A DNA stretch of 64,000 bases from Owenia fusiformis (taxonomy: Eukaryota > Annelida > Polychaeta > Sabellida > Oweniidae): positions 32,232,166-32,296,165 of the forward strand of contig CAIIXF020000011.1 in the NCBI GenBank assembly GCA_903813345.2, in the 5' to 3' direction. The first letter of the stretch is position 1. The number at the start of each line of letters is the position of its first letter. A model generated the notes under the pieces. The model searched no databases. It saw only the letters and a program-made list of their open reading frames with translations, and was not told the DNA's origin. This document shows positions 34,501 to 40,500 of this stretch, in pieces. Made by a program: the position numbers and the translations under genes.

Positions 34501-37500
34501 TGAATTACTGATGATATAACATAAATATTGGTGAAAAATTAAGTTTGTACCTTATATACTTCCAAAGTTATGAATTAAAGTCCATTTTCATTTTGACCCC
34601 CACCTCAAATATCTGGGTAGGGGGAGAATTTCTTTCACAGACGTTATGTAAGATACACTTTTAATATTTTGCACATCTGTTATACATATATAAATACAAC
34701 TATATGAATTATTTCATAAGTTATAACTTCATGAGAGGTCGATTAAAATAAATGTCGTATTTTATCGTTTTGTCATTTAACGGTTTTTATGACTGTATAA
34801 GGGTTAAATTATGCAAATTAGCTTATTTGCATATCAAAAATGTTTTTTCTTAGTTACTGATGTTATTACATAAATTTTGGTGAACAAATAGGTTTATACC
34901 TCATATACTTCCAAAGTTATAAATTAAAGTCCATTTTCAGTTGACCCCCCTGAAATATCTGGGTAGGGGGAGAACTTTTTTCACAATCTATATATAAGAT
35001 GCACTTTTAATATTTTTCACATCTATTATACATATATAGATGCATTTTTAGGAATTATTTCATCAGTTATAACTAACTTCATATGAAGGTAATTACAGTA
35101 AATGTCGTATATTATCATTTTGTCATTTAATAGTTTTTATGGCGGTTTAAGGGTTAAATTATGCAAATTAGCTTATTTTTGTTCAAAATATTTTTTTCTC
35201 CATTACTGATATTATTTTGTAATTTTGGTGAAAAAATTAAGTTTGTATCTTATATACTTCCAAAGTTATGAATTAAAGTTTATTTTCTTTTGACCCCCTC
35301 CCTCCAATTTTAGGGTAAGGGGAGAAATATTTTTCACAGTCGTTATGTAAGATACACTTTTAATATTTTGCACATCTAATATACATATATAGATGCATTT
35401 TTAGGAATTATTTCATAAGTTATAACTTCATATGAAGGCAATTACAGTAAAAGTTGTTTATTATCATTCTGTTATTTAATAGTTTTTATGGCGGTTTAAG
35501 GGTTAAATTATGCAAATTAGCTTATTTTTGTTTGATATATTTTTTTCTGCATTACTGATGTTATTCTATAAATTATGGTGAAAAAATTAAGTTTGTATCT
35601 CATTTACTTCCAAAGTTATGAATTAAAGTTTATTTTCTTCTGACCCCCCTGAAATTATAGGGTGGGGGGTATAAAGACGAGGATATCTTATTTTCGCAAG
35701 CCTCAAACTCTAGATATCACCCCACATCATAAAATAAATATATTTTCCAACAAGAAAATGAAAAAATCTCGCGTAATACTCTCCAATATTCAAAAACAAA
35801 AATATTCAGGCTGGGTCCCTAAGTATTAGGGGCAGATGCATTTACTATTTGATTTTTACCACTATGGGTTTGGAACATAGCTACAGAGGCTATTTTTCTA
35901 TCTTTGACCAGATCGATTCTTGAAAGAAGAAATTGTTTAATCATGATAACAGGTTTAAAGCCCAGCTAATCTTCCCCTACCAGTTATAAATTCTTACTAA
36001 ATATACTCACATTGAGAAAGGAGTCTATGCCTCTGGTGAAAGCCTCCGGTCAAAAATACTTTCAAAATCATGCAGTTTTGACTATTTTGAGCACTTTTCA
36101 AGTGATTTTGGGCTAAAATTGTCAAATTTGAACCCCCTGGAATTTTTTTAAAAAAATACCTCTTTTGGCAAAAGCTGGCTATGGGCCTGGATACGGACAA
36201 AGGGTCTGGATAAATATTTCACTTAATCTGAAAAATGCTTACGTATTTGTCTTGCATCATATGTTTTGTGTTTGCCCCACATTCCATACTTTTCAGGTGC
36301 TTTGAACCTCAGTTTTCCTACTGGTGCTTTAGCATATGGAATACTGTAGAATGCATAAACTGGGTCTTTGTTAAGTGTTGTGTGATGTACTATACCAAGT
36401 ATGGGACCATTAGGTGTGTTCAAATACTTGTACCCATCTAGATAAAAAATGAGGTTTTAAATTGTTGTAAATTTTCATAGTTGTGGCTAAATAGTATCTC
36501 CTGTTAAAAGCTTTCTTTCCCTTTGAGATGTAAACAACAATGATCAATTAAAGAATTAACCATAAAATACTTACTGTGTATTAGAGCATAAATAAAGCTG
36601 CCTCCCAAGTGAAATATAAATGTCACACATATACCCAGGTACATATACCTGTAGTTTCCCTTTGTCATCTTTAGCAGTCTTTGTATAAAATAATTAAAAA
36701 AGGTGACTAATGTACAGCTGTGACAGCTCATCAGTGTAGATTTATATTGACTTAAATTATTCTTGGATTAGTACATGCACACGCCACCCAGACTTGAAAT
36801 TAATGTTTAATTCTTAGGTTTTTGTTTCATATCCAACTGATAGAACATCAATATGGTCAAAGACTCCTGTGTGTTTTTAGCTCACATGGTGAACTTTCTT
36901 TTATTATATATGTTGCCCGGGTACTGTGATGTCATGCTACTATATCAACCATAACTCAAACTGTGTTTTACAAATTATTTTTTTAAACATCCATTTCTAT
37001 ATGGAAGTGCATTCTGTGAAAATTTGAAAAGAAACACTATAAACGAAATGGCAGCACTAGTCCTGTCAATCTTGGGATATCCTGGACCGTACTTGGTTTG
37101 ATGATCTTATATTTGAATACATTTCATTATTATTCTTTATGAAGAAGTCAATTTGGATTAATTTCCAGAATCTGCCATCCCATGTGTTCCACATTTTAGT
37201 TCCCATTCTTCAGGCTATTAAAGCAGACAATAAATGTACATAAATATAATCCAATATTTTCACAAATGCACAAAGAAAACAATTCGTATTTCCAGTTTAT
37301 TTCCATAAGTAGTTTTTACTAGCAACTGTTAATTGTCTATCTTACTTTTTTGTTTAGAAATTAAATGGTAATTTATGTCAAAATAACTTTATAAATTTAT
37401 AAATAAATTTAATCTGACAGCATTGTCTCATAAACACGATATATTGATTAGGATTCATATCAGTGAGGTATTATCATTACATTACTTTTGGGCATGGGAT

Positions 37501-40500
37501 TTCAGATTTGCCATCCCCAATTATATAAATGTGATTTCAGATTTGCCATCCCAAATTATATAAATGTGATTTCAGATTTGCCATCCCCAATCATATAAAT
37601 GTGATTTCAGATTTGCCATCCCCAATCATACAATCATGATTTCAGATTTGTCATCCCTAATCATAAAAATGTGATTTCTGATTTGCCATCCCCAATCATA
37701 CGAATGTGATTTCTGATTTGTCATCCCTTATCATGCAAATGTGATTTCAGATTTGCCATCCCCAATCAAACAAATGTGATTTCAGATTTGCCATCCCTAA
37801 TCATGCAAATGTGATTTCAGATTTGCCATCCCCAATTATACAAATGTGATTTCAGATTTGCCATCCCCAATCAAACACAAATGTGATTTCAGATTTACAA
37901 TCCCCAATCAAACACAAATGTGATTTCAGATTTACCATCCCCAATCATACGAATGCGATTTCTGATTTGTCACCCCTTTTGATGCAAATGTGATTTCTGA
38001 TTTGCCATCCCCAATCATACAAATGTGATTTCAGATTTGCCATCCCATCTAACAAAGAAACATTCTTCTTGAACACACAACGCAGTATGGTTGTGGACTA
38101 TATTCTGCGGAGGAAGCGCTTCAGTGATGATCCCAATGACAACATGGCTTTTGGTAAGTTAAATATGTGATATATTATATATACGTATATATTATGTGGT
38201 ATGTTGCGTACATCAAAGTGAAAGTGCCTGTTATGCATGAAGAATCCTATTTATACAGTCATCTACCTACTCGTAGTGTGTCATTTCTAGATTCATAGAA
38301 CAACTGGTATTGTGTTGATTTTTTCAAGACCTTTTATTATGATCAACATGAATCAACATTTGAATTTTTGAATTATTTCAAAAGATAAGGGGTGTTATTG
38401 AAACCACAATAAGTACTGTACTACTTTAATTGTAGGATTTTTAATTGAGGTACATATACAAGTCAGATATTCATACAAGTTTAACCACATAAGTAAAATA
38501 TATGTGAGATGATATTCTGACAAGACAGAATGATACAGTTAACATAAAGATGTATTTTATAGAATATATGTTTACCTTATAGAGTCATTATAGAATACAT
38601 GTTTACTTTATACAGTTGTATTGATTTCTTGCAGGAATCAGAAAGTTGATATCTGATGGCTTTTATGAGGCAGCTTATCCCCTACATGAGGTGAGAATGC
38701 TAATATGAATATATTGTAAAACATATTGTTGAACAAAGCCATAGAATAACAAATGTTAAACCTTGGGGCTCTTATCCTTTACTTGAAAATATGATCTTGG
38801 CTTTTAACACTTATTGTAAAAAATGTTTTCACCTTATGACACAACAAGATATTATGTTATTAAAAATAATTTTGGGTTGTAAGAAGAAACATTATGGGTC
38901 ACTTGTTCTCGATGGGACTCTCCAAATAGAAGAGATGTGTCAATCAGAGAGTTTTGGATCAACTTACTCTAATATATTTGTTGACATTTGTTCATTTGAG
39001 AGACAGGGGCGTCAGACCATATATGAAAAAGGGGGTCAGTTTTTCCTGACATCCGCATCCAACACAACCCCCCCTCTGACACTCATGAGAGATGTCATTA
39101 CATTAATTTTTTATAAAAATTAAGTTCATCTCTCTAAAATATTATTTCAGGGGAGTTGGAAACCAAAGAGCCTGAAACCCAATGTTCGTAAAATGTTATA
39201 TGACCACTGGGCACACTGGAGCAACTGGCACAAGCTCCAACCATTGGATTATATCAGGTACATGAACCAGGAAATACCTGCACTTGCTAATAGCACTTAT
39301 AGATGGAAATACCCGCACTTGCTAATAGCACTTATAGATGGAAATACCCGCACTTGCTAATAGCACTTATAGATGGAAATACCTGCACTTGCTAATAGCA
39401 CTTATAGATGGATGTTTCGGATACAATTATCCATGAAGACAGAAAACAAGTTTTGCGTTTGTTGGATTATTTCTGATATAATTTAAAAATGACAAAATTA
39501 CATTTAATTTAATTGCCGCTAATGTTGTAAAACTTTGGCAATCAGCTGACTTTGTACATCTATGTTATTATTTGAAATAAATCGATAACATGAACCTCAC
39601 AAAATTACATTTCTCAAATTGTAACATCTGAAATAAATTTATAACAATGTCTTCAAATATATATTTCCCAATTCTATGTTAACCATATTTGTATGTTTAA
39701 TATAATATGATATATATAATACATGTATAATATATGATATGATATGCAAAAAGTTTATGTTACTCTAGATAAAATAATAAGAGAACTGTTTAAGTCACAT
39801 TTTGTTTTTTAGGTATTACTTTGGTGCAAAGATAGGGATGTACTTTGCCTGGTTGGGGTTCTACACATACATGTTGATACCAGCATCTATAGTTGGACTA
39901 GTTGTCTTCATATATGGACTAGTCACCTTTCAGGATAATGTGCCAAGGTAAATTATTCATCTTTTGCAAAATAAATTATACAGTGAAATCTGTCTAAGTG
40001 GAACATCTTTGGTACCTCTAAAAGTGTTCCACTTGGGAGGTGTTCCACTTATAGAGGTTCATTTAACATTCAGTTGGTCTTGGGGCTCTGTAAAGTGTTC
40101 CACTGACAGAGGTGTTCCACTTTACAGGTTTCACCGTAATTGCATTTAATATTGTATTGAATTACATTGTATCATATTGTACAGACAGTTTCCATGCCAA
40201 TCCAAACTTTATTTGGTTGGATGATTAAAAGTTGTTATAAACCTGAAAATGCCAGACAATCAAACCAGATGATTGCCTAATGTAAAATAGAATTGGATGC
40301 CTTTAATTTTAGAGTTGAATGGATTCTCTATTGTTGTTCTAGTGATGATATATGTAACAAAGAATGGAATATCACCATGTGTCCGCAGTGTGACAATAGG
40401 TGTCCTTTCTGGAACCTCAATGAGGCTTGTACCCACTCCAGGGTCAGCAGACTCTTTGACAATGGGGCCACCGTCTTCTTTTCTATCTTCATGACATTTT

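What the first reader, a model, noticed from the sequence alone, without database searches (positions are those of the whole stretch)
37496..38050. Fifteen tandem copies of a 3' splice site in front of anoctamin exon 6
The true acceptor GTGATTTCAG plus the first 12 exon bases is the last unit of a 35-bp minisatellite. Eleven of the upstream units keep a usable TTTCAG with the same downstream context, so the spliceosome meets a row of near-identical acceptors. 35 is not a multiple of 3: using the nearest upstream unit would shift frame and hit TGA, whereas adding three units would restore the frame. This suggests a minisatellite born from an intron-exon boundary that could make length-variable or regulated isoforms.
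Basis: partly seen in the sequence, partly recalled or inferred. Interest (0 to 1): 0.78.

Follow-up and report, generated by a model that had tools for sequence, protein, structure and literature searches.

The report
Tandemly copied splice acceptor in anoctamin
In an annelid worm's anoctamin gene the signal that marks the start of one exon has been copied into a row of sixteen near-identical signals, of which only the last gives a normal protein; this kind of repeat was known from lancelets, and here it recurs in several genes, making these genes natural tests of how cells choose the right splice site.

Summary
A 35-bp minisatellite (37494-38046, 15.7 copies) carries sixteen copies of an intron-exon boundary. 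The last, 38034|38035, is the authentic acceptor of an anoctamin exon: exon 5 (ending 26382) joins it in phase and the junction peptide aligns with mouse anoctamin-1. Eleven of fifteen upstream copies keep AG; four are TG. No upstream copy gives a productive frame. The three-unit shift (+105 nt) restores frame but meets TGA, so the proposed protein isoforms are not supported. A head-to-head paralogue has one acceptor at the matching codon and no array, so a single unit is ancestral.

The structure is of a known kind, the "mirage" minisatellites of lancelets, which duplicate intron-exon boundaries while splicing stays normal. This genome is an annelid (probably Owenia). I found four more in ~82 exons sampled, including a 13-copy acceptor array before the Scr/Hox5 homeobox and a donor array with at least 61 GTAAGA sites. 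That frequency is what random minisatellite placement would give.

Best explanation: neutral expansion of a splice boundary, tolerated because exon definition picks the exon-proximal copy. For exon 6 a 105-nt AG-free zone with branch-site motifs may help. No RNA evidence was available.

The parts
26231..26382 (+). anoctamin exon 5 (KLDDVLP...YNRHKEY + CT), donor CT|GTAAGT, phase 2
   Evidence: found by phase-2 donor scan and reading frame; with exon 6 and later exons matches Anoct_dimer 93-221
26383..38034 (+). intron 5, about 11.65 kb, ending in the acceptor minisatellite
   Evidence: exon 5 donor and exon 6 acceptor
37494..38046 (+). 35-bp minisatellite, 15.7 copies: about 23 nt of intron 3' end plus 12 nt of exon per unit
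   Evidence: TRF; unit listing
37505..37929 (+). span of the eleven decoy acceptors keeping AG (AG ends 37505, 37540, 37575, 37610, 37645, 37750, 37785, 37820, 37855, 37892, 37929), all leading to a premature stop; two TG copies (37680, 37715) lie among them
37930..38032 (+). AG-free stretch before the true acceptor, holding two units mutated to CTG (37964, 37999), which creates CTGAT branch-site-like motifs at -34 and -69
38033..38034 (+). authentic 3' splice site AG
   Evidence: phase, ANO1 alignment across the junction, paralogue boundary
38035..38153 (+). anoctamin exon 6, [39 protein letters not shown](G), donor G|GTAAGT
46535..46697 (+). second acceptor minisatellite of the same gene: 54 bp x 3, acceptors ending 46574, 46628, 46682; the two upstream ones keep frame modulo 3 but meet TGA
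46683..46760 (+). anoctamin exon [26 protein letters not shown] behind the 54-bp array
39270..39412 (+). 35 bp x 4.1 minisatellite just inside the intron after donor ATCAG|GTACAT; it does not include the splice site

Best explanation
This is a boundary minisatellite ('mirage'). A segment of about 23 intron bases and 12 exon bases around the single ancestral acceptor of anoctamin exon 6 was tandemly multiplied, probably by slippage or unequal exchange, and grew into the intron. The copy joined to the exon stays authentic and the rest are intronic decoys. Splicing most likely still uses 38034|38035, for two reasons. First, exon 6 sits between long introns (11.65 kb and about 480 nt), so exon definition pairs the splice sites closest across the exon. 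Second, the two nearest decoys have lost AG by an A>T change, which leaves a 105-nt AG-free zone and also creates CTGAT branch-site-like motifs. Occasional use of an upstream copy would give a premature stop and decay. Shown: the array, the frames, the gene, the single copy in the paralogue. Inferred: the expansion route, which acceptor is used, and the fate of mis-spliced RNA.
For: Array and units. Frame analysis: only the last copy is productive. Junction peptide aligns with mouse ANO1 and joined exons match both anoctamin Pfam domains. The paralogue about 70 kb away has one acceptor, TTTCAG|CTTTATAATT, in the same phase at the matching Phe codon and no array. The 35-bp unit occurs only here. 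AG-free zone and branch-like motifs at the authentic site; 8 of the 11 AG decoys have no yUnAy motif in their AG-free zone. The four other arrays found have the same geometry, with the exon-joined copy giving the open frame and the array running into the intron. Lancelet mirages splice normally (PMC3087553; PMC3902484). Between large introns the sites closest across the exon are preferred (PMC9225289).
Against: No RNA was examined. Some decoys differ from the authentic unit by a single base in 35 (37610, 37785, 37855), so local sequence alone predicts little discrimination. Unit 37750 has the same AG-free zone and similar branch-like motifs as the true site, and 37820 and 37929 have one motif each. 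yUnAy is a loose motif, and several single-copy acceptors of this gene also lack one in their AG-free zone, so it has little weight. Copy number could be affected by assembly.
Confidence: 0.78

Rival explanations
1. The array is a regulatory poison element: several upstream acceptors are used at a measurable rate, the products carry stops and decay, and the number of units sets anoctamin output.
For: Eleven decoys keep AG in near-identical context; all lead to premature stops.
Against: Lancelet mirages show normal mRNA. The geometry is explained by neutral growth, and boundary arrays are about as common as minisatellites in general.
Confidence: 0.12
2. Alternative acceptors make functional anoctamin proteins with variable inserts.
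For: Several AG copies restore frame modulo 3 (+105, +249, +459).
Against: Each of these meets an in-frame stop.
Confidence: 0.02
3. A pre-existing or dispersed satellite was inserted at, or captured as, the exon boundary, so the exon start derives from the repeat.
For: Minisatellites are common in this genome.
Against: The unit is unique to the locus. Its exon part encodes residues aligned with ANO1, and the paralogue has the same boundary without an array.
Confidence: 0.03
4. The array is an assembly artefact, or its copy number is wrong.
For: Tandem arrays are error-prone; no reads were available.
Against: The sixteen units carry distinct variants in a non-periodic order, which simple mis-joining of one unit would not create; the whole 553-bp array would fit inside a single long read.
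Confidence: 0.05

Closest known systems
'Mirage' minisatellites of lancelets (Adh3; globins BflGb6 and BflGb9; troponin C; PGBD5)
   Same: Tandem repeats spanning an intron-exon boundary at acceptors or donors, many units keeping AG/GT, apparently normal splicing (PMC3087553, PMC3902484)
   Different: Here in an annelid; sixteen acceptor copies in one array and at least 61 donor copies in another gene, against 3-6 copies in the BflGb6 example; no expression data yet
Minisatellite giving multiple splice donors in a human interferon-induced transcript (6-16 / IFI6; Turri et al. 1995; title seen in the reference list of PMC3618361, paper not readable here)
   Same: A minisatellite whose units carry splice sites
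   Different: Donor sites, and by its title several are provided to one transcript; here acceptors and no productive alternative
Internal tandem repeats at exon-intron boundaries of human segmental-duplication genes (PMC2812944)
   Same: Minisatellites of about 30 bp at exon-intron boundaries that can change splicing
   Different: There repeats are retained or become new introns in recent paralogues; here the copies lie on the intron side of an old conserved boundary
NAGNAG tandem acceptors (PMC3250501)
   Same: Competing adjacent acceptors
   Different: 3-nt spacing gives an in-frame choice; here 35-nt spacing, a long array, and stops in all alternatives

Membership tests
mirage minisatellite (lancelet type) | tandem repeat unit spans an intron-exon boundary | tested here: met
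   about 23 nt intron + 12 nt exon per unit, boundary verified
mirage minisatellite (lancelet type) | many but not all units keep the splice dinucleotide | tested here: met
   11 of 15 upstream units keep AG
mirage minisatellite (lancelet type) | authentic copy lies at the exon edge of the array | tested here: met
   last unit, 38034; the only copy with an open frame
mirage minisatellite (lancelet type) | normal mRNA despite the copies | not testable with these tools
   no RNA data held
mirage minisatellite (lancelet type) | length polymorphism or somatic instability | not testable with these tools
   one assembly, no reads or second haplotype
mirage minisatellite (lancelet type) | host is a cephalochordate (all named mirages read about here; host range, not a structural criterion) | tested here: not met
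   Lox5-, Lox4-, Post2- and Post1-type homeodomains and annelid linker (Eryth_link_C) matches point to an annelid
anoctamin (TMEM16) | Anoct_dimer and Anoctamin domains | tested here: met
   PF16178 E 2e-38, PF04547 E 1.4e-52; ANO1 E 2e-91
functional alternative acceptor system | at least one upstream acceptor gives an open frame into the exon | tested here: not met
   all fifteen upstream copies meet a stop

The most novel reading that the evidence does not exclude
The array evolves under selection to keep the true site dominant: A>T changes in the nearest units silence decoy acceptors and at the same time build branch sites, so dead copies become part of what directs splicing to the last copy. 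More broadly, this annelid carries boundary arrays at a few percent of exons, some of which (Scr/Hox5, +75 nt, 25 extra residues before the homeodomain) yield usable variant proteins.
Probability: 0.15. Interest if true: 0.72.

Novelty: new member of a known kind. Interest (0 to 1): 0.52.

Why it matters
Boundary minisatellites are natural experiments in which the spliceosome faces many sites of nearly equal strength. In the papers read here, arrays named mirages are described only from lancelets. Finding five in about 82 exons of an annelid, up to at least 61 donors in one intron, suggests that they arise wherever minisatellites are dense and are tolerated because exon definition selects the exon-joined copy. 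RNA-seq from this species could test that directly: exon-proximal choice against first-AG scanning. The Scr/Hox5 array is the case most likely to affect a protein.

Tried and rejected
Lancelet origin of the genome: no GFP-family match (uncontrolled), while Hox signatures and annelid linker proteins point to an annelid. COX1 for species identification: no match. Special attraction of minisatellites to splice sites: 5 observed junctions against about 5-8 expected from repeat coverage, so neither enrichment nor clear depletion. Protein-level isoforms for exon 6: rejected by frame. Independent origin of the four TG units: unclear. The pairs 37715/37964 and 37750/37999 resemble each other, so a few A>T events may have been spread by block duplication. 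The 1995 IFI6 and 2002 Adh minisatellite papers were not held.

Full report
What is there. TRF reports a 35-bp minisatellite at 37494-38046 with 15.7 copies. Each unit reads about CAATCATACAAATGTGATTTCAG|ATTTGCCATCCC: some 23 bases of intron end and 12 bases of exon. There are sixteen boundaries, the last at 38034|38035; eleven of the fifteen upstream copies keep AG and four have CTG. A genome-wide DNA search finds the unit only in this array, with the caveat that this search skips very common words.

The acceptor is real. Exon 5 was located at 26231-26382, ending ...YNRHKEY CT|GTAAGT in phase 2. Joined to A|TTT GCC ATC it gives [19 protein letters not shown], which aligns with mouse ANO1 FSREKQHLFDLT-DRDSFF with no gap at the junction and a single gap a few residues later. 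The joined exons match Anoct_dimer and Anoctamin over the curated cut-offs. The intron is about 11.65 kb and contains antisense carboxylesterase-family exons.

Frames. Every upstream copy leads to a premature stop. The nearest upstream unit is not an acceptor at all (TG). The nearest AG copy, three units up (+105 nt), restores the frame but meets ATG TGA after twenty codons.

Origin. A paralogous anoctamin lies head-to-head on the same chromosome. Its homologous exon starts at TTTCAG|C TTT ATA ATT AAC AAC AAG GAC ACA TTC, in the same phase at the matching Phe codon, with one acceptor and no array. A single boundary is thus ancestral, and the exon part of the unit is old coding sequence. Several decoys are within one base of the authentic unit (37610, 37785, 37855), whereas the first unit (37505) and the two 37-bp units are the most diverged; the distances of the 37-bp units are inflated by ungapped comparison.

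How the right copy may be chosen (inferred). Local sequence hardly separates copies. Two features do. (a) Geometry: the authentic copy is the one joined to the exon, and between long introns the sites closest across the exon are preferred (PMC9225289). (b) The two nearest units are dead: the A>T change turns TTTCAGAT into TTTCTGAT, removing a competing AG, leaving 105 nt without another AG, and creating CTGAT, a branch-site-like motif, at -34 and -69. Eight of eleven decoys have no yUnAy motif in their AG-free zone. But unit 37750 shares these features with the true site, and several single-copy acceptors of this gene lack the motif, so (b) is a suggestion only.

Not alone. The same gene has a second acceptor array (54 bp x 3, 46535-46697) before the exon [12 protein letters not shown]; its upstream copies also meet TGA. 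Among exons fetched elsewhere in the genome, three more boundary arrays appeared. One is a 76-bp x 13.4 acceptor array before the homeobox exon of a Scr/Hox5-like gene, where the nearest upstream copy adds 75 nt in an open frame while all others stop; the phase there is inferred from the homeobox frame, as exon 1 was not located. The second is a 95-bp donor array in an anoctamin on C2, with 61 intact CAG|GTAAGA in 6 kb and continuing beyond the piece read. The third is a 28-bp x 29.5 donor array, CCC|GTAAGT, in an anoctamin on C1. In all five the exon-joined copy gives the open frame and the array extends into the intron.

Is that more than chance? About 82 exons (some 134-164 junctions) were sampled; 5 junctions lie in arrays. 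Minisatellite coverage is 3.7-5%, so 5-8 are expected. Boundary arrays are thus about as frequent as random placement predicts. This argues that they are nearly neutral, and against a specific function. The sample is small and not random.

Which organism. Lox5-, Lox4-, Post2- and Post1-like Hox genes on one chromosome and annelid erythrocruorin linker matches indicate an annelid. Size (498 Mb) and Hox layout agree with Owenia fusiformis (505.8 Mb, 12 chromosomes, Hox cluster with Post1 downstream on chromosome 1; PMC9977687). The species assignment is an inference.

What is known. Tandem repeats spanning intron-exon boundaries were named mirages in lancelets (Adh3, globins, troponin C, PGBD5), with apparently normal mRNAs (PMC3087553; PMC3902484). 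The present array meets the structural criteria. RNA behaviour and polymorphism could not be tested. I found no report of such arrays in annelids in the library searched, which holds only open-licence papers.

Verdict. A real, well-built example of a known kind in a new phylum, probably neutral, useful as a natural test of splice-site choice. The isoform hypothesis for exon 6 is not supported; the Scr array deserves a look.

Noticed in passing
L041 479-1497 (G000 C1, near 18290537): Scr/Hox5-like homeobox exon preceded by a 76-bp x 13.4 array of its own acceptor; the nearest upstream copy would add 25 residues in frame before the homeodomain.
   Followed up: partly
L027 1531 onward and L084 (G000 C2 34461428-34467400): Anoctamin exon whose 3' end and donor are repeated at least 63 times (95-bp unit, 61 intact CAG|GTAAGA), array not ended in the piece read.
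   Followed up: partly
L032 704-1528 (G000 C1, minus strand): 28-bp x 29.5 array (99% identity) carrying CCC|GTAAGT at the end of an anoctamin exon; matches to the same Pfam region (about 228-284) occur three times in that gene, suggesting tandem exon duplication.
   Followed up: partly
window 30153-36456, minus strand: Carboxylesterase-family (PF00135) exons nested antisense inside anoctamin intron 5.
   Followed up: partly
window 40568-41363: Inverted terminal repeats TATCACACCAAACTAGTTC ... GAACTAGTTTGGTGTGATA bounding about 0.8 kb in an anoctamin intron, like a small DNA transposon.
   Followed up: no
window 60456-60529 and 61537-61611: 15-bp tandem repeats CCAGTTGTCCGAAAC and, about 1 kb away, nearly their reverse complement; looks like an element with repeated ends.
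   Followed up: no
window 49063-49516 and 55227-55316: Nearly the same 46-bp minisatellite unit occurs as two arrays (9.9 and 2.0 copies) about 6 kb apart.
   Followed up: no
L047 and L049 (G000 C1 17970454-17970981): Two Post2-like homeoboxes only about 175 bp apart, suggesting a tandem duplication.
   Followed up: no
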